Assembly (NCBI RefSeq): GCF_002795805.1
Contig: NZ_CP018799.1
Coordinates: 489,001-553,000, forward strand
Length of the DNA: 64,000 nucleotides
Direction of reading: 5' to 3'
From: Mariprofundus aestuarium
Lineage (GTDB): Bacteria > Pseudomonadota > Zetaproteobacteria > Mariprofundales > Mariprofundaceae
Under the pieces are notes generated by a model. That model worked only from the letters and a program-made list of their open reading frames with translations. It did not search any database and was not told where the DNA came from. How positions within the stretch are numbered: the stretch's first letter is position 1; each line of letters begins with the position of its first letter. Shown here piece after piece: positions 6,325 to 23,458 of the stretch. The position numbers were made by a program, and so were the translations under genes.

Positions 6325-8757
6325 CTACAAGCCCAGTTCGAAGAAACCTGCATCCTCTTTCGGTTGCTGGTCTAGCCGCCTTTCCAGGGCAGGAGTCTCT
6401 TCAGTCGGCGCGGTGCCGCTTCGGAACGCTTCAAGGAACACCTCTTCAGTGTCTGGACCGGGCAGCAAACCGGTTTTTTGATCAATGACTACCCATTCGA
6501 CGCCTTCGGGAGGTGTGAAGTCCTTCACTGGCCGATCTTCATGAAAGGCCTGCATTGCCTCCAGCCATGCAGGCAGGGCTGCGCGAGCACCGGTTTCACT
6601 GCGTCCCATCGGGGTGGGGGTGTCACGACCTGTCCAGACTCCGGTCATGACCTGTGGCGTGTAACCCATGAACCAGGCATCAACCTGTTTGTTGGTGGTG
6701 CCGGTTTTTCCTGCTGCCGGGCGGTTCAGGGCAAGTGCTCGCTGGCCTGTTCCGCGCTGGATAACACCCCTCATCATGTTGGTGATAAGAAAGCTATCTA
6801 CGGGATTAAGCGCCTGCTCGGCCGGGCGCATCGTATCGCTGGCCGACATTACTGGGTTCACATGACAGACCTGACAGCGGTTGCCCGAAACGGAGCGGTG
6901 AAGCGTGTTGCCGGTGCGGTCCTGCACCTGCTGGATGGAAACAGGAGTCCACTTCTGCCCCTGGTTCGCCATGATGGTGTAGGAGTTGGTGAGGGCCTCA
7001 AGCGAGACCTCGGTTGCACCGAGAGATATGGCCAGCTGCTGAGGGAACTCGCGCTCCAGAGGGAAGGTTTTAAGGTCGCCCAAGAAACGCCTGATACCGA
7101 TGTTCTGTAACACCTTGATCGAGGCGAGATTGCGTGAGTGCTCCAGTGCATTGCGCAGTGGCACGGGGCCCGCAAAATTGTCTTTATAGTTCTCCGGACG
7201 CCAGAAATCATCGCTCTGATCGCTATCGAAAATCACTGGAGTGTCCATGACAATCGTGGCCGGTGTTGAACCGTTTATCAGCGCAGAGGTGTAGAGGAAC
7301 GGTTTAAAGGCACTGCCTGGCTGGCGCATTGCCTGATGTACGCGGTCGAAGCCTGAGGTCTGGTGTTGGTAGCCGCCAACGCGTGCAAGCACGGTGCCTC
7401 GCTCCATATCAATGGCGTAGAGTGCCGACTCGATAGAAGGCTCCTGTGCCAGTCGTACACCTTGATTTTCTGTGCCCTGAAGGCGAATTTCATCCCCCTT
7501 TATCCAGGTGCGCGGACGCTTATTCAGTTCGGCTAACTTCTCTGCGGAAGCTCCGTCTTTTTTATAATCTGAAAGCGATTTCCATGTCCACTTAGGCTTG
7601 CTTAATTTCCACTGTCTGATGCCGTCATCAACGGTCAGGTCACCATTGGAATGCGTTTTGATGACCAGTGCATGAACCAATTCATCTGTTCTGATTAATG
7701 GCGCAGGGATTGCTTCGTTTGTTGCCGAAATATCAGGTCGGGGTTCACGGGCCTTCTTCCATGTCTCAAGCAGCTCTGGCCAGCTCTCAGGGGCATGGTT
7801 TGTTGGATAGCGGTAGTACTGGCGCTGTTCTATATCCAGTACGCCATGGCGAACCGCACTGATGGCTGCTTCCTGTGCTTTCGGATCGAACGGAACTGTG
7901 ATGGTCAGCCCCTGCCTGCGTAGGGTTTTCAGCCCGAATCGGTCGGTCAGCTGGCGCAGCACAAGATCAGCGTAGGCATCGTTAAGTTTGGGTGCATCCA
8001 GTTCCGCAACCTGCATCGGTTCGCTCAGAGCAGCCTTAACCTCATGTTCACTGGCGTAGCCACTTCCCTGCATCAGGCGCAGCACAGTATTACGCCGCTG
8101 TGTAGCCTTTTCCGGATTGATATGCGGTGCATATTTGCCCGGCGATTTTGGCATGCCTGCAATGGTGGCGCACTCTGCAAGGGTCAGCTCACCCAGGGGC
8201 TTGTGGAAATAGCGCCATGCCGCCGAAGCGACGCCATATGATCCCCGCCCAAGATAAATATGGTTCAGGTAGAGATAGAGGATGTCATTCTTGGAGAGTG
8301 CCTCTTCAATTCGGTAGGCAAGAATCGCTTCGCGAATCTTACGGGTGTAGGAGCGCTCAGAGGTGAGAAGGAAGTTCTTTGCCACCTGCTGGGTGATGGT
8401 CGAGCCACCCTGTACAGTGTGGCCAGCGCGTAGGTTGGCCAGAGCAGCCGAGAGGATACGGGCAGGGTTGATGCCCGGATGTTCGTAAAACTGCTGGTCT
8501 TCTGCTGCCAGGAAGGCCATTCTAAGTTTTTCTGGAATCTGCTCGAACGGCACAAGGATACGGTGTTCATCTGCATACTCGGCAATCAGTTCGCCTTCCG
8601 TGTTGTAAACACGTGATGCCAGTGGCGGTTGATAATCGGAGAGCGCGGTGAGCTTGGGCAGGTTGCTGGAGAAGATAAGATACCCTATTGTAATGCCCAT
8701 CACTGCAAGCAGGCTTAAGGAGAGTAAGATTTTCGCGATAATGGATAGGATGCGCAT
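6325..8757 (-). CDS. mrcA: Penicillin-binding protein 1A (bifunctional murein synthase)
   Basis: An 810-residue class A PBP. It has a membrane anchor at residues about 5-28, then a GT51 glycosyltransferase domain (AAEDQQFYEHPG, VQGGSTITQQVAKNF), an OB-like insert and a transpeptidase domain with SAFKP (SxxK nucleophile), SRN and KTGTT. It builds and cross-links peptidoglycan in the periplasm. The region between the SRN and KTG motifs contains CQVCH (6862-6876): many PBP1A proteins have a CxxC pair here, and the following His makes a c-type heme motif. The ATG at 8757 has no clear ribosome-binding site and lies only 22 bases from divergent fimT. Confidence 0.93.
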   Translation of the reverse strand: MRILSIIAKILLSLSLLAVMGITIGYLIFSSNLPKLTALSDYQPPLASRVYNTEGELIAEYADEHRILVPFEQIPEKLRMAFLAAEDQQFYEHPGINPARILSAALANLRAGHTVQGGSTITQQVAKNFLLTSERSYTRKIREAILAYRIEEALSKNDILYLYLNHIYLGRGSYGVASAAWRYFHKPLGELTLAECATIAGMPKSPGKYAPHINPEKATQRRNTVLRLMQGSGYASEHEVKAALSEPMQVAELDAPKLNDAYADLVLRQLTDRFGLKTLRRQGLTITVPFDPKAQEAAISAVRHGVLDIEQRQYYRYPTNHAPESWPELLETWKKAREPRPDISATNEAIPAPLIRTDELVHALVIKTHSNGDLTVDDGIRQWKLSKPKWTWKSLSDYKKDGASAEKLAELNKRPRTWIKGDEIRLQGTENQGVRLAQEPSIESALYAIDMERGTVLARVGGYQHQTSGFDRVHQAMRQPGSAFKPFLYTSALINGSTPATIVMDTPVIFDSDQSDDFWRPENYKDNFAGPVPLRNALEHSRNLASIKVLQNIGIRRFLGDLKTFPLEREFPQQLAISLGATEVSLEALTNSYTIMANQGQKWTPVSIQQVQDRTGNTLHRSVSGNRCQVCHVNPVMSASDTMRPAEQALNPVDSFLITNMMRGVIQRGTGQRALALNRPAAGKTGTTNKQVDAWFMGYTPQVMTGVWTGRDTPTPMGRSETGARAALPAWLEAMQAFHEDRPVKDFTPPEGVEWVVIDQKTGLLPGPDTEEVFLEAFRSGTAPTEETPALERRLDQQPKEDAGFFELGL

Positions 8758-8779
8758 TAACCCGAATTCAAGCGGAACC

Positions 8780-9253
8780 ATGGAACTCAGGCAAGCTGTA
8801 GTTTCTGGTGATGAAAAGGATATTCCAACCCAGCGAGGTTTCACTCTGGTGGAGGTGCTGATTGTTGTTGTCATTATCGGCGTAATGAGCGCGATCGCAC
8901 TCCCCTCTTTTTCCAGCTGGCGTGAGAAACAGGCTGTTCGCGGTGCCGCGCAAACGCTGCTCTCTCACCTGAAGCAGGCGCGTGTATTGGCTATTGCGGA
9001 AAACCGGAGTGTGAGCATTACTTTTACATCGACCAGTTATACCTATGATGCCGATCTATCGGGAAGTTGTGGGGCGTGCCGTTCGCAGGTGATCAGCTAT
9101 GATGAGTTTTCCAGCAACCTCTCTATTTCGCCTACCACAACCCGTACATTCACCAGTCGGGGCACGTCCAATTCTGGAACTATGACATTAACTGTGGGCG
9201 GCACTAGCCGGTCGATTACCCAGAATGTAATTGGAAGGTCATATCTTCAATGA
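8780..9253 (+). CDS. fimT: Type IV minor pilin, FimT/GspH-like
   Basis: A 157-residue pseudopilin. The leader MELRQAVVSGDEKDIPTQRG ends at the prepilin peptidase site G/FTLVEV, followed by the hydrophobic helix. The C-terminal beta domain has Cys residues (GSCGAC). It is a priming minor pilin by family. The start at 8780 lies beside the divergent PBP1A start, with AGCGGA as a weak ribosome-binding site. Its last codons overlap pilV by four bases, so the minor pilins form one operon. Confidence 0.8.
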   Translation: MELRQAVVSGDEKDIPTQRGFTLVEVLIVVVIIGVMSAIALPSFSSWREKQAVRGAAQTLLSHLKQARVLAIAENRSVSITFTSTSYTYDADLSGSCGACRSQVISYDEFSSNLSISPTTTRTFTSRGTSNSGTMTLTVGGTSRSITQNVIGRSYLQ

Positions 9254-9744
9254 AAACGCAACGAGTTGAATCTTCTGCTGGATTTACCCTTATCGAGATA
9301 CTGGTTGCGTTTGTAGTTATCTCCGTGGGCGCGCTTGCACTGGGAAGCTTTGGCCTCACTACGATGAGTAGCGGTCAGACGTCTCGCGAGCGGTTAACTG
9401 CGGTACACCTGGCCGAGCAGGTGTTGGAGCACTGGCAGCAGGATGCAAATGATTATGCACCGACGATTGCAGCCGACTGCACCATGAGCGCGGCCTCTGC
9501 AGCTCCTTCATATCCCACCAGTGACACCTGTAATCCTGCTACAGGTGTCGGAATCGCATTTACTATTGCGGCCAATACAACCAATGCGACTGGGCCTCTC
9601 GCATCAAATCTGACCGGCATGCAGAACTTCACCCAGCCTACGGGCTACCTGAATACGCCAATGACAAAGCTTGTGACGGTTTCATGGACCCGCAGGGGGA
9701 AGAGCCGCACAGTCTACCTTACCCACTTGTCGAAGGTGTACTGA
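9250..9744 (+). CDS. pilV: Type IV minor pilin PilV-like
   Basis: A 164-residue prepilin with leader ending at G/FTLIEILVAF and a hydrophobic N-terminal helix, followed by a variable domain with a Cys pair (DCTMS, DTCN). The fimT-pilV-pilW-pilX order is the usual minor pilin order and supports the name. Overlaps at both ends (ATGA with fimT, TGATG with pilW) indicate translational coupling. Confidence 0.8.
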   Translation: MKTQRVESSAGFTLIEILVAFVVISVGALALGSFGLTTMSSGQTSRERLTAVHLAEQVLEHWQQDANDYAPTIAADCTMSAASAAPSYPTSDTCNPATGVGIAFTIAANTTNATGPLASNLTGMQNFTQPTGYLNTPMTKLVTVSWTRRGKSRTVYLTHLSKVY

Positions 9745-10364
9745 TGCTTTTCTCTGGCTTTCAAGGTGTATATTGTGAGGGTAACCCTGGGGAGAAGGGT
9801 TTTACCCTGATCGAGATGTTGATCGGCATGACCATTGGGTTGATTCTTCTTGCCGGCCTGACAGCGCTGTTTGTCTCTTTTAACGATGCTGGCAGGTCCG
9901 TGGCCTCTCGAACCGAGCGCATGGCAGATCTCTATCTCGCATCTCATTTGATGCAAGCGGAGCTTCGTCAGTCACTCAGTGCGCCTCTGGCAACCAAAAG
10001 TGTGCTGACAGATTTGAGCGGGCGGGGTGTCAGTAATCCCACAAACTACCCTACCAATGACGCCGACTTTGCCGTTCTGCCGTTCTGGCATGCAGCGAGC
10101 AAAACGCTCACTTATCAGGATCTGGAGGGTAATGTCGGAATTGTTCAGTATCAGAAGACGAGCAATGACAGAATCTACTGGTTGCGGCCTGAAGCTACGG
10201 CTTCGACCTTTCAGGAGCTGATGCGGGATCTTGATACGACAAGCGGCATGGTGGTGACTACAGCTGGCGGGGTGGCGACAGTGACTTTGAGCTCCAGTTA
10301 TATCAATGAAAACAAAGAGACGAAAACATTGAGCCTGACGTTCAAAACATGGCCGAGGAATTGA
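9744..10364 (+). CDS. pilW: Type IV minor pilin PilW-like
   Basis: A 206-residue prepilin. The leader is longer than usual (about 20 residues) and ends at KG/FTLIEMLIGM, the prepilin peptidase site, followed by a hydrophobic helix. PilW helps build the initiation complex at the pilus tip in characterised species. The ATG at 9744 overlaps the pilV stop. Confidence 0.78.
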   Translation: MLFSGFQGVYCEGNPGEKGFTLIEMLIGMTIGLILLAGLTALFVSFNDAGRSVASRTERMADLYLASHLMQAELRQSLSAPLATKSVLTDLSGRGVSNPTNYPTNDADFAVLPFWHAASKTLTYQDLEGNVGIVQYQKTSNDRIYWLRPEATASTFQELMRDLDTTSGMVVTTAGGVATVTLSSSYINENKETKTLSLTFKTWPRN

Positions 10365-10365
10365 G

Positions 10366-11346
10366 ATGATGGCGAACTGTTCAGGATGCGCTGACCGGGA
10401 AAAAGGTTTTGTGCTGGTAACGGCAGTGATTATGCTCGGTCTGCTGACGATGCTATCTCTGGCGATGTTCTTCTCTTCAAGAACTGCAACGCAGACCAGC
10501 ACCTCTGCCCAGACCTCGACTGAGGCCTATTATTATGCCGAAACCGCGATCAACTATATTGCATGGGCATTGGCCAACGATGCCGAGTTCGATTCATATG
10601 CGAGTTACCCCGGCTCCTATGATCATGCCGGGTTTGCTGAGCCTCCGCTTCCTACAGGGTTTACTACGGGCTACTACGCTACAGTTGGAGATTACAATGA
10701 GTGGGGGGCGTATCGATACCACCCCGGCCCCACGGCCATCAGTGATTCAGGCGCTGGTGTCACTGGGCAGGTGATGTATTTCGATAATACGCCGATGGGT
10801 AACCGGACGATCTGCTTTGAAGACGATGCCATCTTTTCAAACTGTATCGATGTTGCAACCGATCCAGCATCACGCGTCGCACCAACCATGTATCATATTA
10901 GTGTGAATCTGCCGCGTTACATCAAGCTGAATATTGCATCCGACGGTACGATTACGCCATCCATGCCGCAGTTACCGCATCAAAATCCACCGGTGGTAGG
11001 AGAAGATATCCCCGAAAATGGCGCTGTTGTCTGGATTACTGCGGGTGATTCGAACAACCTTGAGAGAGACATCGAGATTTTTCCACTGGACCCGGATTTG
11101 TCGGCAATCTATTCGGGTGATGGAATACTTGCGCCTTCAACCTGTAGCGGAGGCCTTGCACCTGCTGCATGCCCCTGTACTGCACCTATGCCTGCTACTG
11201 CGGCAGCATGTGAGACTCATGCCAATGGTGATGCTACTGCCAGTGCAAACATGGGGGCATGGATTACAAGCTACAGGATTGTGGCTTATGCTGTCGGTTA
11301 TGTGAACGGAAGAGCATCCCACCTGATTCGGGCGGTCGTACGATAA
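10366..11346 (+). CDS. pilX: PilX-like minor pilin / pilus assembly protein
   Basis: A 326-residue protein with an N-terminal PilX-type segment: KGFVLVTAVIMLGLLTMLSLA (a G/FVL processing-like site and one hydrophobic helix), then the S-x-E-A-Y-Y-Y-A-E-T region typical of PilX_N. The C-terminal part is Cys-rich (CSGG...CPCTAP, with CETHANGD near residue 285). It starts two bases after pilW. No pilY1 follows; the next genes are the tandem CH/HGD secreted proteins. Confidence 0.75.
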   Translation: MMANCSGCADREKGFVLVTAVIMLGLLTMLSLAMFFSSRTATQTSTSAQTSTEAYYYAETAINYIAWALANDAEFDSYASYPGSYDHAGFAEPPLPTGFTTGYYATVGDYNEWGAYRYHPGPTAISDSGAGVTGQVMYFDNTPMGNRTICFEDDAIFSNCIDVATDPASRVAPTMYHISVNLPRYIKLNIASDGTITPSMPQLPHQNPPVVGEDIPENGAVVWITAGDSNNLERDIEIFPLDPDLSAIYSGDGILAPSTCSGGLAPAACPCTAPMPATAAACETHANGDATASANMGAWITSYRIVAYAVGYVNGRASHLIRAVVR

Positions 11347-11550: not shown

Positions 11551-12093
11551 ATGAAGAAAAATATATTGATGATGGCCGTGTTCGCAGCCTTCCTTTCATT
11601 CTCTGTCGTTAAGATTGGCGATGGCGTAACAGTGGCTGTTCCAGCTGTGGAAGCTAAAGCTGAAGCCAAGGTGACGATTTGTCATATACCACCAGGCAAT
11701 CCGTCAAACACTCAAACCCTTTCGGTTGGAGAGTCGGCTGTCGCTGCGCATCTGGCGGAGCATGGAGATTACCTGGGGGCGTGCGGTTCTGCTGTGACGA
11801 ATGACAACGACAACGCGTCGAACAGCAATGACAACGCGTCGAACAACAACGACAACGAGTCCAAAGACAACGACAACGAGTCCAAAGACAACGACAGCGA
11901 GTCCAAAGACAACGACAACGAGTCCAAAGACAACGACAACGAGTCCAGCGGTGGCGGATCTTTATCTTCATGTGACTGCCCTCCGGGTATACCATCATGT
12001 GTCTGCCCTGATGGGGCAGCAGGCAACCCGATTACTGCAACTCCATTGTCAAATGCCAATGTGCAATCACTGCGCTCGATTCACGGCGAGTAA
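11551..12093 (+). CDS. Secreted CH/HGD-motif protein 1 with Asn/Asp repeat linker
   Basis: A 180-residue exported protein, function unknown. Layout: signal peptide (hydrophobic to about residue 20, probable cleavage after VEA near 35); a CH/HGD core (KVTICHIPPGNP ... SAVAAHLAEHGDYLGAC, about residues 40-79); seven 7-residue repeats of DNDNESK type (85-133); a Cys cluster (CDCPPG, CVCPDG); and a terminal RSIHGE. The paired Cys and His residues suggest metal binding or disulphides. The acidic/amide-rich repeat resembles linkers in secreted matrix proteins. It is preceded by AGGAG and belongs to a family of four tandem paralogs. Similar CH...PPGN...HGD segments occur, to my recollection, in uncharacterised secreted proteins of many phyla. 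Confidence 0.85.
   Translation: MKKNILMMAVFAAFLSFSVVKIGDGVTVAVPAVEAKAEAKVTICHIPPGNPSNTQTLSVGESAVAAHLAEHGDYLGACGSAVTNDNDNASNSNDNASNNNDNESKDNDNESKDNDSESKDNDNESKDNDNESSGGGSLSSCDCPPGIPSCVCPDGAAGNPITATPLSNANVQSLRSIHGE
11803..11949 (+). repeat. Seven 21-bp tandem repeats (DNDNESK codons)
   Basis: Seven in-frame units of the form GACAACGACAACGAGTCCAA(A), with variation at codons 1, 4, 5 and 7 (first units encode A-S-N, later ones E-S-K). The later units are nearly identical, which suggests recent slippage expansion. Confidence 0.95.
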
Positions 12094-12103
12094 TTGGGGC
12101 TGT

Positions 12104-12131
12104 GCTGGCGCTGAAATAGTGCTAGCGTTTT
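12104..12131 (+). terminator. Possible weak terminator/attenuator between paralogs 1 and 2
   Basis: A 9-bp stem including G-U pairs (CTGGCGCT with AGTGCTAG, closed by G104-C126) around a GAAAT loop, followed by CGTTTT. The T tract is short, so partial read-through into the next gene is likely. Confidence 0.35.
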
Positions 12132-12174
12132 CCAATGGATTGCTCAATTGGAGTGGTCCTTTGGAGGTAGTGTG

Positions 12175-12963
12175 ATGAGAAATATGTTGTTGCTGGCCGC
12201 TTTTGCAGTCTTGTTTTCATTCTCTGTCGTTCATGTTGGCGATGGTCTATCAGTGGCTGTCCCAGCTGCAGAGGCAAAAAAAGCGCATAAAGTGGATGTC
12301 TGTCATATCCCGCCGGGAAACCCGTCCAATGCACATACGATCAATATTGATCAGTCGGCTGTCGATGCGCATCTGGCTCACGGAGATTATCTGGGGGAGT
12401 GTGGCGCTGTAGTTGTTGAAGACAACAGCAATGACAACGAGTCAAATAGCAATGACAACGAGTCAAATAGCAATGACAACGAGTCAAATAGCAATGACAA
12501 TGAGTCAAATAGCAATGACAATGAGTCAAATAGCAATGACAATGAGTCCAAGGACAATGACAATGAGTCACAGGATAAGGTGACCGTTTGCCATGTGAGC
12601 AAAGGTGGCGGCAGCGACAACGAGTCCAAGGACAACAGCAGTGACAACGAGTCCAAGGACAACAGCAGCGACAACGAGTCCAAGGACAACAGCAACGACA
12701 ACGAGTCCAAGGATAGCGGTAGCAGTCAAACGACTTCAGTCCAGGCCCTTGAGATAAGCGCGTCGGCGCTGGATGCACATCTGGCTCACGGTGATATTGA
12801 AGGTGCTTGCCCAACAACACCAACCTGTTTCTTGTGCGGTACCGGTGGCCCTGGTGATGGAACATGCATATGTCCAGATGGTAAGCCTGGTTCATTTGTT
12901 TCCGGTCCTGTTTCTGGTCCTGCAGCAACGCCGGAGAGGATTCGTTCGATCCAGGGTGAATGA
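12175..12963 (+). CDS. Secreted CH/HGD-motif protein 2, two cores and two repeat blocks
   Basis: A 262-residue paralog of the previous gene, exported by a similar signal peptide (cleavage probably after AAEA near residue 35). First core: KVDVCHIPPGNP ... SAVDAHLAHGDYLGEC. Then seven SNDNESN-type repeats. A second core starts as KVTVCHV but is interrupted by four 9-residue DNESKDNSS-type units before it resumes as SASALDAHLAHGDIEGAC. The C-terminus has CFLCG, CICPDG and RSIQGE. The ATG at 12175 follows GGAGG. Function unknown; metal binding or surface/matrix scaffolding are possibilities, not conclusions. Confidence 0.85.
   Translation: MRNMLLLAAFAVLFSFSVVHVGDGLSVAVPAAEAKKAHKVDVCHIPPGNPSNAHTINIDQSAVDAHLAHGDYLGECGAVVVEDNSNDNESNSNDNESNSNDNESNSNDNESNSNDNESNSNDNESKDNDNESQDKVTVCHVSKGGGSDNESKDNSSDNESKDNSSDNESKDNSNDNESKDSGSSQTTSVQALEISASALDAHLAHGDIEGACPTTPTCFLCGTGGPGDGTCICPDGKPGSFVSGPVSGPAATPERIRSIQGE
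12427..12573 (+). repeat. Seven 21-bp tandem repeats (SNDNESN codons)
   Basis: Seven units based on AGCAATGACAACGAGTCAAA(T), the last two drifting to KDNDNESQ. Same length and copy number as the block in paralog 1 but different codon choice (AGC AAT, TCA), so the two arrays have probably expanded independently. Confidence 0.95.
12613..12720 (+). repeat. Four 27-bp tandem repeats inside the second CH/HGD core
   Basis: Four units encoding (S/N)DNESKDNS, last unit ending SG. This array separates KVTVCH from the SALDAHLAHGD half of the second core. Confidence 0.93.
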
Positions 12964-13011
12964 TTAATCTGAACCATTGATGACTCTGGTTCATGGAGTA
13001 GGAGGTAAGTT

Positions 13012-13482
13012 ATGAAAAACATTCGAATGATGATCTATGCCACGTTGGTTGTGTTTGGCATGCCTGCCTCAGTGGCTTTTGCTGATGCAGTTGGATTCTG
13101 TGATTGCAGTGCTGTCGATACCGGGGATAAGGTGGTGATTTGCCATGTTCCAAAGGGCAATCCAGATAATGCTCATACCATATCGGTTGCTGAATCCGCG
13201 GTGAAAGCCCATGTTAAACAGCATGGTGATACGATGGGGCCATGTCCGACTTATGTGGCTAACGACAATGAGTCCAGCGATGGTAAGGACAATGTGGCTA
13301 ACGACAATGCAGCCAACATGTCCAATGAGTATGGCGACGATAAGGATAATGTGTCCAATGTGTCCAATGAGAATGAGGCGGAGGCTGGGGCTCCTTGCGT
13401 CTGTTCCGATGGTTCGGTTGGAGAGTGGATGCACGGTGAGGTGAAAGGGCCTCAATCCACCCGAGAGGTTCATGGAAAGTAG
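13012..13482 (+). CDS. Secreted CH/HGD-motif protein 3
   Basis: A 156-residue exported paralog. Signal peptide to about AFA/DA at residue 25; then FCDC; the core KVVICHVPKGNP ... SAVKAHVKQHGDTMGPC; a degenerate Asn/Asp-rich linker (DNESSDGKDN, SNEYGDDKDN) without clean DNA repeats; then CVCSDGSVG and a terminal REVHGK. It resembles paralog 4 more than paralogs 1-2 (shared AFAD signal end, FCDC, HGEVKGP). A Shine-Dalgarno sequence (AGGAGG) precedes the ATG, and a strong terminator follows. Confidence 0.85.
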   Translation: MKNIRMMIYATLVVFGMPASVAFADAVGFCDCSAVDTGDKVVICHVPKGNPDNAHTISVAESAVKAHVKQHGDTMGPCPTYVANDNESSDGKDNVANDNAANMSNEYGDDKDNVSNVSNENEAEAGAPCVCSDGSVGEWMHGEVKGPQSTREVHGK

Positions 13483-13503
13483 CTGTTAAATAAAAGCTAT
13501 GAG

Positions 13504-13536
13504 AAAAGCCACTTTCTAAGAAAGTGGCTTTTTTTT
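13504..13536 (+). terminator. Rho-independent terminator after paralog 3
   Basis: AAAGCCACTTTC-TAAG-AAAGTGGC stem-loop followed by eight T residues. Confidence 0.9.
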
Positions 13537-13562
13537 GCCCGGTCTCCGGCGGTGTTTCCATG

Positions 13563-13690
13563 AGAAGCTGTTTGAACAATAGTGGCATTCTTTTTCTTTT
13601 ATCGGTACCGGTGGTCATGGTGATTGGAGCTGTACATGTCTGAATGGTACTAAAGGTTATTCCTGAGAGTCCGTTCGAGTGAGGGTGGTG
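13563..13690 (+). pseudogene. Decayed C-terminal remnant of a fifth family member
   Basis: Frame 13583-13663 reads WHSFSFIGTGGHGDWSCTCL then NGTKGYS and a stop. This aligns with the C-terminal CFLCGTGGPGDGTCICPDG region of paralog 2. DNA similarity runs further: GGTACCGGTGG is identical, the upstream bases GAAGCTGTTTG match GAAGGTGCTTG, and GAGAGTCCGTTCGAG resembles the codons for ERIRSI of paralog 2. Stops, a deletion and the lack of a start show it is a relic of a lost copy. Confidence 0.6.
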
Positions 13691-13749
13691 GAAACTGATT
13701 GGGAGGACTATACTGATAGTATTCAGCTCAATCGAATAGGAGGTGAAGC

Positions 13750-14112
13750 ATGAGAAAGTTTCGAGTTCTGATCTATGCTGTATTAATTGCATTTAGTGTG
13801 CCTGCTTCTGCGGCTTTTGCGGATGTTTCCGGTTTTTGTGACTGTAGTGCTGCTGAAGAAAATGGGGGCAAAGTAAAAATATGCCACTTCCCTCCAGGTA
13901 ACCAGGAGAATGCTCATACCATTGAGGTAGGTGCGCCGGCAGTAAAAGCTCACCTGAAACATGGCGATCTCTTGGGTGAATGTGAGGGTGATGAGGTGGT
14001 CGTTCCACTGGAGACTGGAACACCTTGTATTTGTGCCGATGGCTCGGTTGGTGTCTGGGTTCATGGGGAAGTGAAAGGGCCAGCCTCTATGCGCGAGGTT
14101 CATGGAAAGTAG
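13750..14112 (+). CDS. Secreted CH/HGD-motif protein 4 (short form, no repeats)
   Basis: A 120-residue exported protein, the minimal family member. Signal peptide to AFA/DV (about residue 25), FCDC, the core KVKICHFPPGNQ ... APAVKAHLKHGDLLGEC, a short linker, CICADGSVG and terminal REVHGK. The absence of the repeat linker shows that the linker is dispensable and that the conserved parts are the CH/HGD core and the CxCxDG tail. The ribosome-binding site is AGGAGG. A terminator lies 25 bases downstream, so it is probably its own transcription unit. Confidence 0.85.
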   Translation: MRKFRVLIYAVLIAFSVPASAAFADVSGFCDCSAAEENGGKVKICHFPPGNQENAHTIEVGAPAVKAHLKHGDLLGECEGDEVVVPLETGTPCICADGSVGVWVHGEVKGPASMREVHGK

Positions 14113-14178: not shown

Positions 14179-15711
14179 ATGGTGCTATTTGCCTTACTAT
14201 ATATGGATATGCGCACGCTTCTGATTAAATACTGGGAAATGGCTGTTGCCTTTCTTGTGGCGATGACCGTTGTCGGCTTCATCCTGTTTTCCAGCCCCGG
14301 TATGGCTGGCAATGACGGATATTATCATATCTCTATTGCTTCAATCATTTGGGAGCAGGGGCTTATCTTTGAGTTTCCTTATCTCGAATTTACGTTGCTG
14401 GATTCTGAGCATTATGTCGATATGCATATGCTGTTTCATCTGCTGCAGTCACCGTTCACTGCCTGGCTGGATCTTGAATCGGCGGCAAAGCTTGCATCGG
14501 CTACATTTATAGCCCTGACATTTGTGCTGTTTGTATGGTTGCTGAAACAATATAAAATTCGATACCCTCTGTTCTGGGTCTTTATTCTTTTGATCCTGTC
14601 TGAGTCGTTTCTTTATCGTATGATGATGCCTCGCCCGCCAATTTTTGCTCTGGCCTATACCTGGTTGGCTTTTCATTTTCTGCTGCAGAAGCGTTTTGTT
14701 GCACTTACAGTGGTGGCCTGCCTGTTTGCATGGACCTACAAGGTTTTCCCCATTTTATTGCCGATGGCCGTTATTGCTATGGCTGTTTATTATCTGTGTG
14801 AGCAAAAGGTCACTGTCAAACCACTATTTGCTGTATTGGCGGGGATTGCAGCGGGCATGATCATCACCCCCTATTTTCCTGACAATGTCGAATTTTTATA
14901 TCATGCAATTCAGGCGAAAATCCTTTCGGATGGTTATGTCGCAGGGGTAGGTAATGAGTGGTATCCACTTAAAACACTGGCTTTGCTTAAGGATGCGTAT
15001 ATCCCGCTTGGTTTATACCTTGCCGGCATTCTTATGACTAACCGGGAAGAGTGGAGGTCTGATCCTGCAAGGCTGTTCTGGTTCTTGCTCGCCAGTATGT
15101 GGCTGGTGATGTTGTTTAAGTCACGGCGCTTTATTGAGTTCTTTCCACCTGCAGCACTTTTCTTTTTTCTGTTCTCAATCAGGTCGCATCTGGACCGCTT
15201 TTCAGTGACAAGTGTCTTAACGACGATGCGAGGCAGGTTTGCAGCATTTGCTCTTGTTTCTGCAGTGATATTATCCGGTGTTACGATGCTTTCAGGCACC
15301 TATGAGTGGCTGCAGCGGAGGATGCCGGTTGAGGCCTATCATGGTGGCAGTCAGTGGCTGGCGGAAAACACACCTGAAGGCAGCACCATTTTTCATACAG
15401 ACTGGGATGATTTCCCCAGGATGTTTTTTCATAATCGACATAACCGTTATATTGTCGGCCTAGATCCCGATTATATGCGCTTGAAAGATGCGGATATGTA
15501 TAGTGACTGGCGAAAAATAAGCAGGGGTAAAATCAATCACCCGGAAGATATGATCCTCAACAAATTTGGCGCTGAGTATGTGTTTACAGACACGCGCCAC
15601 AAGCGCTTCATCAAGGCTGCAGATAATAATATGCGAATGAAACGGATGTTTTTTGATAAATATACAGTCGTTTACAGGGTGCTTCCGTCTCCTGATTTGC
15701 CGTCACTGTAA
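14179..15711 (+). CDS. Polytopic membrane protein, GT-C glycosyltransferase-like
   Basis: A 510-residue protein with about eleven hydrophobic segments through residue 380, then a soluble tail. The first periplasmic loop has GNDGYYHIS, resembling the D-x-Y-Y-H style motif of GT-C enzymes (oligosaccharyltransferase and lipid-linked sugar transferases). The tail pattern SQWLAENTPEGSTIFHTDWDDFP and GAEYVFTDTRH is also common in such transferases. Those enzymes move sugars from polyprenyl donors in the periplasm. The acceptor is unknown; a pilus or secreted protein is possible given the location. The start could be 14179, 14203 or 14209, none with a clear ribosome-binding site. Confidence 0.6.
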   Translation: MVLFALLYMDMRTLLIKYWEMAVAFLVAMTVVGFILFSSPGMAGNDGYYHISIASIIWEQGLIFEFPYLEFTLLDSEHYVDMHMLFHLLQSPFTAWLDLESAAKLASATFIALTFVLFVWLLKQYKIRYPLFWVFILLILSESFLYRMMMPRPPIFALAYTWLAFHFLLQKRFVALTVVACLFAWTYKVFPILLPMAVIAMAVYYLCEQKVTVKPLFAVLAGIAAGMIITPYFPDNVEFLYHAIQAKILSDGYVAGVGNEWYPLKTLALLKDAYIPLGLYLAGILMTNREEWRSDPARLFWFLLASMWLVMLFKSRRFIEFFPPAALFFFLFSIRSHLDRFSVTSVLTTMRGRFAAFALVSAVILSGVTMLSGTYEWLQRRMPVEAYHGGSQWLAENTPEGSTIFHTDWDDFPRMFFHNRHNRYIVGLDPDYMRLKDADMYSDWRKISRGKINHPEDMILNKFGAEYVFTDTRHKRFIKAADNNMRMKRMFFDKYTVVYRVLPSPDLPSL

Positions 15712-18685: not shown

Positions 18686-19768
18686 GTGTCTTTTTTTTCA
18701 AACAGGTCTGAAGGGGTTGTTGGTGTAGATATTAGTTCGACCGGAATCAAGCTGGTTGAATTATCGCACTCCGGTTCAGGATATGAGCTTACCTCCCTGG
18801 CAACAGTTCCATTGCCGCGAGATGCTATTGTGGAAAATACGATCATTGACTCCACTGCTGTTTCGCAAGCGCTTATCGAGGCGGTAAATACAGCTAAGCC
18901 GTCCACTAAAAATGTGGCGTTGGCTGTGTCCGGGAATGCTGTGATTATCAAAACAATTGCCATTCCAACAGTCAGTGAGTTTGAACTTGAAGCTCAGATC
19001 CAGTTTGAGGCTGATGAACATATTCCTTACGATATCGACGATGTGTTTCTGGATTTTTCTATTCAGGGCATGACAGCGGATAACCCTGAGTTGATGGATG
19101 TGGTGCTTGTAGCCTGTAAGCGTGAGGTTGTGGAAGACTATCAAATGGTTCTTGCTGAGGCGGGATTGACCGCAAAGTGTGTTGATTGTGCTGTGTTTGC
19201 GCTGGAAAATGCAGCTGAGGAAACGGGTGGCTATGCTGCTTCCAAGGGTGGAGCCCAGCTGCTGGAAGACGAAGATGCGGATGTTCATGCATTGATTAAT
19301 ATCGGCGCCAATATGATGAACATCAATGTACTTATTAACGGGCAGATGGCATTTGTTCGAGACCAGTATTATGGCGGCCAGAACCTGACTGAAGAGATTC
19401 AAAAAGAGCATGGCATCAGCCATCATGCAGCAGAACAGTTGAAAACAGATGATTTCGACAGTATCCATCCCGAGGCTTTGGAGCGCTTTTACGTGGGGCT
19501 TACTTCCGAATTGGTGCGCTCTCTCGATTTCTACTCTGCCAGCAAAGCTGAGTTTCCTGTGCGTAAGCTTTTGCTATCCGGTGGTTGTGCGTTGATTCCG
19601 AATATCGCGACAGAGCTTGAGCAGCGTCTGGGAATCGATACTGCGGTTCTCAATCCACTGGATAATATTAAGATTTCAACACGAAAATTTGATGAGCAGC
19701 ATTTGCGGAGGATCGGACCGATGTTGATGGTGCCAATAGGTCTTGCGATGCGGAGCTTTGACTCATGA
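18686..19768 (+). CDS. pilM: Type IV pilus inner-membrane platform protein PilM
   Basis: A 360-residue actin-like cytoplasmic protein. The ATPase-fold phosphate loop is VGVDISSTGIKLVEL near the N-terminus, and the second is LLLSGGCALIPNIA near residue 295. PilM binds the N-terminus of PilN and links the pilus motor to the periplasmic alignment complex. Start codon is GTG, preceded by GGAGGG. The stop overlaps pilN by four bases. Confidence 0.93.
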   Translation: MSFFSNRSEGVVGVDISSTGIKLVELSHSGSGYELTSLATVPLPRDAIVENTIIDSTAVSQALIEAVNTAKPSTKNVALAVSGNAVIIKTIAIPTVSEFELEAQIQFEADEHIPYDIDDVFLDFSIQGMTADNPELMDVVLVACKREVVEDYQMVLAEAGLTAKCVDCAVFALENAAEETGGYAASKGGAQLLEDEDADVHALINIGANMMNINVLINGQMAFVRDQYYGGQNLTEEIQKEHGISHHAAEQLKTDDFDSIHPEALERFYVGLTSELVRSLDFYSASKAEFPVRKLLLSGGCALIPNIATELEQRLGIDTAVLNPLDNIKISTRKFDEQHLRRIGPMLMVPIGLAMRSFDS

Positions 19769-20358
19769 TTCGTATTAACCTGATTCCCTACCGTAATGCC
19801 AGGCGTCAGCAGAAGATTATGCAGCACGTGGGTATATTCTTCGCGGTAATTGTAGTTGCTTTGTTACTTACCCTAGGAGTCCATTCAACCATCTCAATGC
19901 AGCTTTACGACCTCAAAGAGGAGACGCTTAGCCTGCAGCAACAGAACGCTGAGTTGAAGAAGAAAATCGGCAAAATCAAGGATTTAGCCAGCCTTCGCGC
20001 AGATGTTGAGCGCAAACTTGCTATCATCGACAGGTTGCAGGCAGGACGTTTCCGCTCTCTGAACACACTGCATGAGATTGCTAAGGTCATACCCGACAAT
20101 GTGTGGATCAAGTCGATCAAAGATCGTGGAGAAAACATTGAACTTTCAGGCCTTGGCGAAAGTAATAAAGCGGTTGCCAACTTCATGCGAAAGTTGGATA
20201 GCTCCCCTCTGTTCTCCAATATACAGTTGCTTGTGATCAGCCGGGTTGCGGTAGATGGTCGTGCAGTCAGGGAGTTCAGTCTGAATTTGAGTCGTACCGA
20301 GGAGTTATCTGAGAGCAGCAATGCTGAAGCGGCTGCCAACAAGGGAGGGAGGGGCTGA
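19765..20358 (+). CDS. pilN: Type IV pilus assembly protein PilN
   Basis: A 197-residue bitopic protein starting MIRINLIPYRNARR, the conserved PilM-binding peptide (INLLPYR type). One membrane helix follows (residues about 22-45), then a coiled coil and a small periplasmic domain. It overlaps pilM and its stop overlaps the pilO start. Confidence 0.93.
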   Translation: MIRINLIPYRNARRQQKIMQHVGIFFAVIVVALLLTLGVHSTISMQLYDLKEETLSLQQQNAELKKKIGKIKDLASLRADVERKLAIIDRLQAGRFRSLNTLHEIAKVIPDNVWIKSIKDRGENIELSGLGESNKAVANFMRKLDSSPLFSNIQLLVISRVAVDGRAVREFSLNLSRTEELSESSNAEAAANKGGRG

Positions 20359-20975
20359 TGTTTGATTCTCTGAAAGCTTCTCTGAGCGAGGCTCTGCGCC
20401 CCATACTTCCGCTGCCAATGTGGCAGAAGATGGTTGTGCTGGCTTCTACATTTTTCGTGATTGTTGCCGCCTACCTCTATATGGGGTTTATGCCGATTCA
20501 GGATGAGATTGCGCAGCAGGAGTCGCAAGTAAAACTGGAGAAGGTTCTGCTGGCTAAAAATCAGAAGTTGGCGCAAGACATTCCGCGCAAGCAGAAAGAG
20601 TATGCCAAGCTGGAAAAGCAGTTGAAAGTGGCATTGAATATGCTGCCGAAGAAATCTCAAATTCCGGACCTTCTGGAAAATGTTTCATGGGCGGGTAAAG
20701 ACTCCGGCCTTGAGTTCAGTGTTTTTAAGCCGGAAAGGGAAGTGGCTAAACAGATTTATGCTGAGGTTCCTGTGGCACTCGATGTTACTGGTAGTTTTCG
20801 CCAGCTGCTGACATTTTTGAAGCGGGTCGGAGAGATGCCGCGTATTGTTGATATCAAAAATTTAACGCTGTCACAGGCGAGTAACAATGCGTTGATTGTG
20901 AAAGGTCAGGCAGTTACATACAGGTTTGTTGAAGAGGTTCCCAAAAGCACGCGCACGACGGGCCGGGTAAGATAG
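20358..20975 (+). CDS. pilO: Type IV pilus assembly protein PilO
   Basis: A 205-residue inner membrane protein with one N-terminal helix (residues about 24-46), a coiled coil (about 50-95) and a ferredoxin-like periplasmic domain. It forms heterodimers with PilN. The operon then passes directly to pilQ two bases later, with no pilP lipoprotein gene between. Confidence 0.9.
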   Translation: MFDSLKASLSEALRPILPLPMWQKMVVLASTFFVIVAAYLYMGFMPIQDEIAQQESQVKLEKVLLAKNQKLAQDIPRKQKEYAKLEKQLKVALNMLPKKSQIPDLLENVSWAGKDSGLEFSVFKPEREVAKQIYAEVPVALDVTGSFRQLLTFLKRVGEMPRIVDIKNLTLSQASNNALIVKGQAVTYRFVEEVPKSTRTTGRVR

Positions 20976-20977
20976 GC

Positions 20978-23458
20978 ATGCGCATTTCAACCGGGAGACA
21001 GATGATGGGGTATATCATGAAACATTGGAATGAATGCAGACTGATGCGTTTGCCCGGAAAATTATTGGGCATGATTGCTCTGCTGGGACTGCTGAGTGCA
21101 AACATAACTCAGGTTGAGGCAGCCACAATTAATGGATTACACCTGCTTTCAGACAGGGATGGCCAGCGTTTGAATATTGCCATGGATGAAGCGTCCGAGT
21201 ATCAGGTGTTCAATCTTGAGGGGCCGGCCAGACTGGTGCTGAGTTTTCCCAATGCTTCCATGGTTGATGGTGTTGCCGAGGTTGCAGGTGATGGTGCCGT
21301 AGAGCGCGTTATCCCTTCACAGGATAGTAACGGGGTTCGTATTGAAGTCGCTTTGGCGAAGGGAGCCAAATATAATATTTCTGAAAAAGGGAATGACCTG
21401 CTGATCAATTTCACCGAAGAAGGCAAAAATGTGGATAGCCAGCTTGAAGGGGCGGTGCTACAGGATATTTCAGTTAAGGATAAAGGCAAAACCACCGAGT
21501 TGACTCTTCGTGGTTTGCGCATGGACTCAAATCACAATGCTCTAATTACCAACGATGGTAAAACAATGGTGCTCGATTTCTGGGGCGGTAGTTCGAAGCT
21601 CCCGAAGGAGCATTATACATATTCGGCATTGCGCCTGAACGATGTGACAGTCGGTTCTGCCGAGGGTCGTCTGCGACTGGTGGTATCGTTGCGTCCCGGC
21701 GCAGGCTCCAACCACCAAATCGATGCTGATGCTAACAGCATGGTATTGCGGTTTGGCCAGATTGAGTCGAAAAAGAGAATCAGCGGCCTTACTGTCGAAG
21801 CGGTCGATTTTCAGCCAGATGACAGAATTGCACGCCTGGTTGTCCGTACGAATGAGGCCAATCCGATCATCAACATTAAGGAAGATGACGGCAAAGTGAC
21901 GCTTGATCTTAAAAATGCGACCCTAGCTTCAGGTCAGGAGCGTTCGCAAGATCTGAGTGCCTTCTCAGGGCCTGTCAAACAGGTGGACAGCTATGGGGTG
22001 AGCAAGGATGTTCGGATAGTAGCGCGCCTGCGTCAGAAAGCGGTGGTCTCCTCCTATCAGAGTGGCAATGTGCTTACCTTGACAATGATGCCGCAGGATA
22101 TGGTTGCTGTTTCAGCAGCAGACCAGGCTTTGGCAAGGAATGAAAAACTCTATACCGGCCAGAAGGTGACCTTCAACTACAAGGATATTGATATTCGCAA
22201 TGCCCTTCAGCTGATCGCCGAGATGAGTGATTTCAATATTATTATGTCGGACGATGTTTCCGGGGTGCTGACTATGCGCCTTGTTGATGTTCCATGGGAT
22301 CAGGCGTTGGATCTGATTCTGCAGGCGCGAGGGCTTGGCAAGGAGCAGAGCGGTAATGTGGTTCGTATTGCACCGCTTGGCGTGCTTAAGAGTGACGCTG
22401 ATGCTCGAAAGGATGCAAAGGCCAGTGCCGAAGAGGTCGCGCCGCTGGAGACCGAATTTATTACGCTCGGTTATGCTTCGGTAAATGATGTCCAAACCAT
22501 TTTACAGGGGGGGTCAGTCAAGGCCGACACGCCTGCCGGAAATGCTTCTGGGAGTCAGAATGCTTCAGATACAGGGGGCAGCGGTGAATTGAAACTTCTC
22601 TCCAGCCGAGGTTCCATCCTGCTGGATGAACGTAGTAATACGATGATTATTACCGATACGCGTGAGCGCTTGAACAATATCAAACGGCTGGTGGCTGTGA
22701 TTGATAAGCCTACCAAGCAGGTGTTAATTGAGGCTCGGATTGTGGAGGCGACGGACACCTTTTCACGTGATCTGGGCTTAAAGTGGGGTGGAACTGCCAT
22801 AAGAAACACAACCAATTATACCCAGACACTCACTGGTGCGGCCGCTGGCACTAATGTCGTTGATTTAGGTGCTGCCGTGGGTGCAGGAGCCGGAGGTGCA
22901 ATCGGTTATACGCTTGCTAAGCTGGGTGGAAACTTGAATTTAAACTTGGAGCTCTCTGCTGCCGAACAGGTAGGTGATATCAAGGTGGTTTCAAGTCCGC
23001 GCGTGTTCACCAGTAATCTGCAGGAGGCACTGATTGAACAGGATAAGCAGATCCCGTTTCTTGTTACTACAGTAAGTGCAGGAGGAACAACAACTGCCTC
23101 TGAAATGAAAAGTTCCCTTCTGTCGCTGAAAGTGACGCCACAGATCACAGCTGATGGGCGGATTATTATGATTCTAGAGGTGAACAAGGATACGCCGATT
23201 GCGGATGCGGCAGGTGGCCCTCCGTCGATCGACAAGAAAAAAGTACTGACCAAGCTGCTGGTGAAAAATGGAGAAACTGTGGTTTTGGGTGGTATCTATT
23301 CTCAAACTGAATCCGAGACAGTTAATGGTGTGCCCGGCCTGATGAATATTCCACTTTTAGGCAATCTGTTCAAACGTAAGCAGAAAGTAAGTGATCGTAA
23401 CGAGCTGCTGATATTTATTACGCCGACGATTGTTGGCGATGAAGTCTCCATCCAGTAA
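20978..23458 (+). CDS. pilQ: Type IV pilus outer membrane secretin PilQ
   Basis: An 826-residue secretin, the outer membrane gate for the pilus. Order: signal peptide (from MRLPGKLLGMIALLG, ending about QVEA/A); AMIN-like peptidoglycan-binding domains in the first half (LHLLSDRDGQRLNI, VEAVDFQPDDRIARLVV); STN/N0 (NYKDIDIRNALQLIAEMSDFN) and N1 domains; and the C-terminal secretin barrel (VPGLMNIPLLGNLFKRK near the end). Starts at 20978, 21002 and 21017 are all in frame. GGGAGA before 21002 and the signal peptide position favour a start later than the first ATG. Confidence 0.93.
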   Translation: MRISTGRQMMGYIMKHWNECRLMRLPGKLLGMIALLGLLSANITQVEAATINGLHLLSDRDGQRLNIAMDEASEYQVFNLEGPARLVLSFPNASMVDGVAEVAGDGAVERVIPSQDSNGVRIEVALAKGAKYNISEKGNDLLINFTEEGKNVDSQLEGAVLQDISVKDKGKTTELTLRGLRMDSNHNALITNDGKTMVLDFWGGSSKLPKEHYTYSALRLNDVTVGSAEGRLRLVVSLRPGAGSNHQIDADANSMVLRFGQIESKKRISGLTVEAVDFQPDDRIARLVVRTNEANPIINIKEDDGKVTLDLKNATLASGQERSQDLSAFSGPVKQVDSYGVSKDVRIVARLRQKAVVSSYQSGNVLTLTMMPQDMVAVSAADQALARNEKLYTGQKVTFNYKDIDIRNALQLIAEMSDFNIIMSDDVSGVLTMRLVDVPWDQALDLILQARGLGKEQSGNVVRIAPLGVLKSDADARKDAKASAEEVAPLETEFITLGYASVNDVQTILQGGSVKADTPAGNASGSQNASDTGGSGELKLLSSRGSILLDERSNTMIITDTRERLNNIKRLVAVIDKPTKQVLIEARIVEATDTFSRDLGLKWGGTAIRNTTNYTQTLTGAAAGTNVVDLGAAVGAGAGGAIGYTLAKLGGNLNLNLELSAAEQVGDIKVVSSPRVFTSNLQEALIEQDKQIPFLVTTVSAGGTTTASEMKSSLLSLKVTPQITADGRIIMILEVNKDTPIADAAGGPPSIDKKKVLTKLLVKNGETVVLGGIYSQTESETVNGVPGLMNIPLLGNLFKRKQKVSDRNELLIFITPTIVGDEVSIQ

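What the first reader, a model, noticed from the sequence alone, without database searches (positions are those of the whole stretch)
11551..14112. Tandem family of four secreted CH/HGD proteins of unknown function
Seen: four adjacent exported paralogs (180, 262, 156 and 120 residues) share a core K-V-x-(I/V)-C-H ... A-(V/L)-x-A-H-(L/V) ... H-G-D-x-x-G-x-C, then C-(I/V)-C-x-D-G-x-x-G, and end in R-(S/E)-(I/V)-(H/Q)-G-(E/K). The linker between them varies from none to long Asn/Asp/Glu/Ser arrays. Known: I recall similar CH..PPGN..HGD segments in uncharacterised secreted proteins but no assigned function. Inference: invariant Cys/His/Asp suggest a metal-binding or disulphide-stapled module on a flexible acidic linker, perhaps a matrix, surface or mineral-associated protein.
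Basis: partly seen in the sequence, partly recalled or inferred. Interest (0 to 1): 0.82.

Follow-up and report, generated by a model that had tools for sequence, protein, structure and literature searches.

The report
PilX-linked secreted proteins replacing PilY1
These four small exported proteins sit where iron-oxidising Zetaproteobacteria would be expected to keep the pilus-tip protein PilY1, and they end in a short peptide resembling PilY1's docking end, so they are probably small swappable tips for type IV pili.

Summary
In detail: four tandem exported paralogs with a CH...HGD core, C-x-C-x-D-G-x-x-G and a C-terminal R-[SE]-[IV]-[HQ]-G-[EK]. A fifth lies elsewhere in the genome. The hexapeptide pattern occurs five times genome-wide, all on this family. 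No curated family or solved structure matches. The context gives the likely function. The genes lie between the minor-pilin operon (GspH-PilV-PilW-PilX) and pilM-N-O-Q in most related Zetaproteobacteria. No relative has PilY1, whose usual place is beside pilX. Where the CH/HGD core is missing, a different low-complexity exported protein with the same C-terminal module still follows pilX (module next to PilX in 19 of 26 loci checked). Real PilY1 proteins end in a similar peptide (S-W-R-[EQ]-[IL]), and published models dock PilY1 on PilX through a C-terminal beta-strand. The CH/HGD core is a portable domain found across phyla and repeatedly fused into pilins, including PilX-like ones. Best reading: a PilY1-less tip system, in which the conserved tail docks on PilX and the CH/HGD domain on its acidic linker is displayed outside. 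Shown: sequence, synteny, distribution, fusions. Inferred: docking, surface location, adhesive role. The ligand is unknown.

The parts
8648..9253 (+). GspH/FimT-type minor prepilin
   Evidence: Pfam N_methyl and GspH
9250..9744 (+). PilV-type minor prepilin
   Evidence: Pfam N_methyl; conserved in relatives
9684..10364 (+). PilW-type minor prepilin (true start probably further in than the listed ATG)
   Evidence: Pfam N_methyl at residues 37-59
10366..11346 (+). PilX-type (K-type) minor prepilin; GFVLVTAVIML... has Thr, not Glu, at position 5, as expected of a tip pilin; proposed docking partner
   Evidence: no Pfam hit; N-terminus; homologues at the same place in relatives
11551..12093 (+). 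CH/HGD protein 1 (180 aa)
11668..11784 (+). CH/HGD core of protein 1
   Evidence: profile A3 hit
11803..11947 (+). acidic low-complexity linker of protein 1 (21-base tandem repeat, 6.9 copies)
11989..12093 (+). C-terminal module of protein 1: CVCPDGAAG...SLRSIHGE
   Evidence: profile A8 hit; tail pattern
12175..12963 (+). CH/HGD protein 2 (262 aa), two cores
12289..12402 (+). first CH/HGD core of protein 2
12427..12570 (+). acidic linker of protein 2 (21-base repeat, 6.9 copies)
12611..12713 (+). 27-base repeat array inserted in the loop of the second, split core of protein 2
12739..12810 (+). AHLAHGD half of the second core of protein 2
12856..12963 (+). C-terminal module of protein 2: CICPDGKPG...RIRSIQGE
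13012..13482 (+). CH/HGD protein 3 (156 aa)
13129..13245 (+). CH/HGD core of protein 3
13387..13482 (+). C-terminal module of protein 3: CVCSDGSVG...TREVHGK
13598..13666 (+). decayed remnant of a C-terminal module (FIGTGGHGDWSCTCLNGTKGYS*)
   Evidence: translation
13750..14112 (+). CH/HGD protein 4 (120 aa), nearly linker-free short form
   Evidence: model
13870..13983 (+). CH/HGD core of protein 4; predicted beta-beta-alpha
14014..14112 (+). C-terminal module of protein 4: CICADGSVG...SMREVHGK
18686..23458 (+). pilM, pilN, pilO, pilQ: the other flank of the conserved pilus locus
   Evidence: PilM by Pfam; conserved order in relatives; the names pilN, pilO and pilQ are by position and were not run against a family library

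Best explanation
The four proteins are probably small, exchangeable type IVa pilus tip proteins that do the job of PilY1 in a class of bacteria lacking PilY1. Each is exported by the Sec route. Its conserved C-terminal end (C-x-[CT]-x-[DNG]-G-x-x-G, a spacer, then S-x-R-[ES]-[IV]-x-G-[QNKE]) docks on the Glu5-less tip pilin PilX, most likely by adding a beta-strand to PilX as modelled for the C-terminus of PilY1. The low-complexity acidic linker then holds the variable N-terminal part away from the tip. In Mariprofundus that part is the CH/HGD domain, a small beta-beta-alpha module with two Cys and conserved His/Asp that is also grafted directly onto pilins in other phyla; it is presumably the ligand-binding head. 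Tandem paralogs would compete for PilX and give different tips. Shown here: the gene set, the synteny, PilY1 absence, the tail's tie to this family and to the post-PilX slot, its likeness to PilY1 C-termini, and the pilin fusions. Inferred: docking, extracellular display, adhesive role. The ligand is unknown.
For: Synteny: GspH-PilV-PilW-PilX, then CH/HGD genes, then pilM-N-O-Q in most related genomes. A C-terminal module gene lies 0.5-1.9 kb downstream of PilX, same strand, in 19 of 26 PilX loci, including other genera and another family of the order. PilY1 (PF05567) is absent from all 41 Zetaproteobacteria searched but present in 7 of 20 other Pseudomonadota and in 65 of 249 of a wider sample. 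In genomes without the core, the post-PilX slot holds a core-less exported protein with the same tail. The module occurs in 35 of 299 phylum genomes, all in the window's own order. PilY1 C-termini carry S-W-R-[EQ]-[IL] near the end: a W-motif regex hits 26 of 37 PilY1 against 4 of 743 control ORFs, and the zeta-type regex hits 14 of 37 against 5 of 734 non-family controls. Published AlphaFold-Multimer models dock PilY1 on PilX by eight C-terminal PilY1 residues forming a beta-strand (PMC11046646; PMC13190605). Fusions: CH/HGD cores lie inside PilX-like pilins of other Pseudomonadota pil loci (L181, L177; L178) and inside prepilins of Omnitrophota, Planctomycetota and Acidimicrobiales.
Against: No protein complex was modelled and nothing was tested experimentally. 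The tail-PilY1 likeness is a short motif and could be convergent: zeta proteins lack the Trp, and most PilY1 lack the terminal G-[QN]. Seven of 26 PilX loci have no module gene next door; in several of these PilX is followed by an outer-membrane FadL-like gene and the tail gene lies elsewhere. The fifth paralog in this genome sits far from pilus genes, in a conserved fatty-acid-oxidation/protease neighbourhood. The CH/HGD domain also occurs in many non-pilus secreted proteins. Some of the pilin fusions are one Omnitrophota family and so not independent.
Confidence: 0.6

Rival explanations
1. They are soluble effectors secreted through the pilus machine, like TcpF and CofJ: the tail is an export peptide bound by the tip minor pilin, and the protein is released outside instead of staying as a tip.
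For: TcpF and CofJ are pilus-linked secreted proteins that bind a tip minor pilin through a short flexible peptide (PMC9565799). Low-complexity linkers and several copies per locus fit soluble products. The gene place and tail evidence apply equally.
Against: The TcpF/CofJ peptide is N-terminal and the systems are type IVb. The tail here resembles PilY1, which stays at the tip. CH/HGD heads fused directly to PilX-like pilins elsewhere argue for retention at the tip.
Confidence: 0.2
2. They are periplasmic or outer-membrane assembly factors that prime pilus assembly at PilX without being displayed.
For: PilY1 itself primes pilus assembly with the minor pilins (PMC8833165; title and abstract of PMC7541494). 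Core-less members show that the constant part is the tail module.
Against: Conserved binding-type heads, variable linkers and paralog expansion fit display better than a constant assembly role.
Confidence: 0.1
3. They are surface, stalk or mineral-binding matrix proteins of an iron oxidiser, unrelated to pili in function; the gene neighbourhood is incidental.
For: Acidic Asn/Asp/Glu/Ser linkers; an iron-oxidiser genus; the fifth paralog is not near pilus genes.
Against: Tight linkage to PilX across genera; core-less proteins with the same tail in the same slot; wide phyletic spread of the core without any link to iron.
Confidence: 0.08

Closest known systems
PilY1/PilC (PF05567), type IVa pilus tip adhesin
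   Same: encoded with fimU/pilV/pilW/pilX; exported; variable N-terminal part plus constant C-terminal part; C-terminal S-x-R-[EQS]-[ILV] peptide
   Different: no beta-propeller, 120-262 aa instead of about 1000-1700, low-complexity linkers, several tandem copies, ends G-[QNKE] and lacks the Trp
TcpF / CofJ, secreted proteins of type IVb pili
   Same: small soluble exported proteins encoded with the pilus that dock on the tip minor pilin by a short flexible peptide
   Different: their peptide is N-terminal and aromatic-based; the system is type IVb; no sequence comparison was made
Modular minor pilins with grafted heads (e.g. S. sanguinis PilB/PilC)
   Same: a portable head domain displayed at the pilus tip; CH/HGD heads are themselves grafted onto pilins in other bacteria
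   Different: the window proteins have no prepilin N-terminus; the head is on a separate exported protein

Membership tests
PilY1/PilC (PF05567) | C-terminal beta-propeller domain matching PF05567 | tested here: not met
   no Pfam match in any of the four proteins; no PF05567 in the genome or in any zeta genome, with positives in other genomes
PilY1/PilC (PF05567) | gene in or next to the minor pilin operon, by pilX | tested here: met
PilY1/PilC (PF05567) | C-terminal strand that adds to PilX | tested here: inconclusive
   sequence likeness only; no complex could be modelled
PilY1/PilC (PF05567) | Sec signal peptide | tested here: inconclusive
   typical by inspection; no predictor was available
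PilY1/PilC (PF05567) | Dx[DN]xDGxxD calcium site | tested here: not met
   absent on reading the four sequences; not universal in PilY1 either
TcpF/CofJ | N-terminal peptide after the signal sequence that binds the tip minor pilin | not tested
   the conserved peptide here is C-terminal
modular type IV pilins | prepilin N-terminus (N_methyl) | tested here: not met
   no Pfam N_methyl in the four proteins; met in CH/HGD proteins of other phyla

The most novel reading that the evidence does not exclude
Zetaproteobacteria lost PilY1 and replaced it with a family of miniature exported tip proteins that keep only a PilX-docking tail, onto which interchangeable heads such as a new, widespread, uncharacterised CH/HGD binding domain are mounted on acidic linkers; tandem copies give one cell several pilus tips.
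Probability: 0.5. Interest if true: 0.75.

Novelty: new variant of a known kind. Interest (0 to 1): 0.62.

Why it matters
It would show that the PilY1 tip adhesin can be reduced to a short docking tail plus any head. That would explain how iron-oxidising Zetaproteobacteria run type IVa pili without PilY1, and give a minimal, easily purified system for the proposed PilX strand-addition step. It also defines a small domain found in many bacterial and archaeal phyla, repeatedly grafted on pilins, that Pfam and NCBIfam do not cover.

Tried and rejected
Pfam, NCBIfam, PHROGs and PDB sequence searches gave nothing significant. The NCBIfam ExtJ hit (E 0.013) covers only the signal-peptide region and was rejected. 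Foldseek and VIA-align on the model gave no match worth naming (best VIA-align Z 2.3, ribosomal-protein chains); this does not show a new fold. The pilin-fusion model was folded, but its Foldseek search gave no usable match. The idea that the tail is a general sorting signal carried by unrelated proteins was tested with a looser pattern genome-wide: hits equal the reversed-pattern control, and six candidates checked are not ORF ends. PilY1 absence was first inconclusive because no control genome rang and was repeated with positives. The T2SSK search gave only a borderline hit in a long ORF and rang in genomes without a type II secretion system, so presence of that system is undecided. No paper contains the core motif strings, none was found on pili in Mariprofundus, and the preprint on strand complementation in tip complexes is not held.

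Full report
What is there. The window lies in a complete 2,537,610-base genome. Relatives labelled same genus include contigs whose lengths equal those of Mariprofundus ferrooxydans PV-1, M. micogutta ET2 and Mariprofundus sp. KV, so the source is a Mariprofundus (Zetaproteobacteria); the size recalls M. aestuarium CP-5, from memory only. The four ORFs are as reported and align as described. The second protein carries a second CH/HGD domain whose loop is filled by a repeat array. A fifth paralog lies near 1.7517 Mb, and a decayed C-terminal module lies between genes three and four.

The tail. The DNA pattern for R-x-[IV]-[HQ]-G-[EKQ]-stop hits the genome five times, all on this family. In the window plus 20 relative loci, 33 of 33 tail-bearing ORFs carry the CH/HGD core. 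Among 48 tail-bearing proteins collected later, the end is S-x-R-[ES]-[IV]-x-G-[QNKER], with Ser at -8 in 35 although it was not part of the selection.

The context. In most relatives with the family, the genes lie between GspH-PilV-PilW-PilX and pilM-N-O-Q. In genomes lacking the core, the gene after PilX encodes a different exported low-complexity protein that keeps C-x-[CT]-x-[DNG]-G-x-x-G and the tail (L162, L164, L165, L166; L189, L190, L192-L194). The constant part is therefore the C-terminal module and the CH/HGD core is optional. A profile of the module finds it in 31 of 41 zeta genomes and 0 of 20 others, and in 35 of 299 phylum genomes, all within the window's own order. In 19 of 26 PilX loci the module is 0.5-1.9 kb downstream on the same strand. 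The 7 exceptions include contigs where PilX is followed by a FadL-like gene or by unrelated genes.

PilY1. PF05567 is absent from every zeta genome searched and present in 7 of 20 other Pseudomonadota and in 65 of 249 of a wider sample. Reading PilY1 C-termini shows a conserved end: SWREIFF, SWRELTN, SWRQIFID, SWRVIGN and similar. A W-motif regex hits 26 of 37 PilY1 against 4 of 743 control ORFs (p about 1e-35). The zeta-type regex hits 14 of 37 against 5 of 734 (p about 2e-16; the five are the control hits left after removing family members by eye). The regexes were written after seeing the first PilY1 ends, so the p-values are descriptive. Treuner-Lange et al. [quoted passage not shown] A 2026 paper (PMC13190605) finds this in all four modelled complexes and says the C-terminal part keeps the complex together while the N-terminal part diversifies. 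The zeta proteins fit that description in miniature.

The core domain. A scan of 84,980 genomes with a strict pattern finds 374 loci in Bacteria and Archaea. The invariant residues are C-H, A-H, H-G-D, G and the final C; the PPGN loop varies and may be missing. AlphaFold gives beta-beta-alpha for the core. Of 69 CH/HGD proteins outside Zetaproteobacteria, 8 match N_methyl and 2 match T2SSG. By regex, 11 of 63 have a prepilin N-terminus against 2 of 174 other long ORFs in the same loci (p about 1e-5), but seven of the 11 are one Omnitrophota family. Independent fusions include PilX-like pilins in pil loci of two other Pseudomonadota genomes (L181, L177; L178).

Mechanism proposed. Sec export; C-terminal tail docks on PilX, perhaps by strand addition; linker; displayed head. 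Docking and display are inferred. The ligand is unknown, and neither iron nor a mineral is implicated by the evidence.

Limits. The tail likeness is short. The fifth paralog is not near pilus genes.

Noticed in passing
window 13598-13666: Decayed copy of a C-terminal module between the third and fourth genes, a sign of gene birth and death in the tandem array.
   Followed up: partly
window 15741-18548: 935-aa membrane protein with spermine-synthase and TPR domains travels with the pilus locus in zeta genomes, and in one non-zeta genome (L178) lies next to a CH/HGD-bearing PilX-like pilin.
   Followed up: no
L187 6664-7008: The fifth paralog (ends YSMRSIQGQ) sits in a conserved neighbourhood of fatty-acid-oxidation-like genes and an M50-type protease in Mariprofundus.
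   Followed up: partly
L064, L070, L094, L101, L129, L135, L088: Omnitrophota prepilins with the CH/HGD domain inserted within the globular head (long N-terminal helix plus sheet in the model).
   Followed up: partly
L143-L161; plasmid NZ_CP096660.1: The CH/HGD domain also occurs on 19 contigs of the viral collection and on a Halorussus plasmid.
   Followed up: no
window 14179-15711: 510-aa multi-helix membrane protein with no Pfam match, beside the post-PilX genes in several relatives.
   Followed up: no
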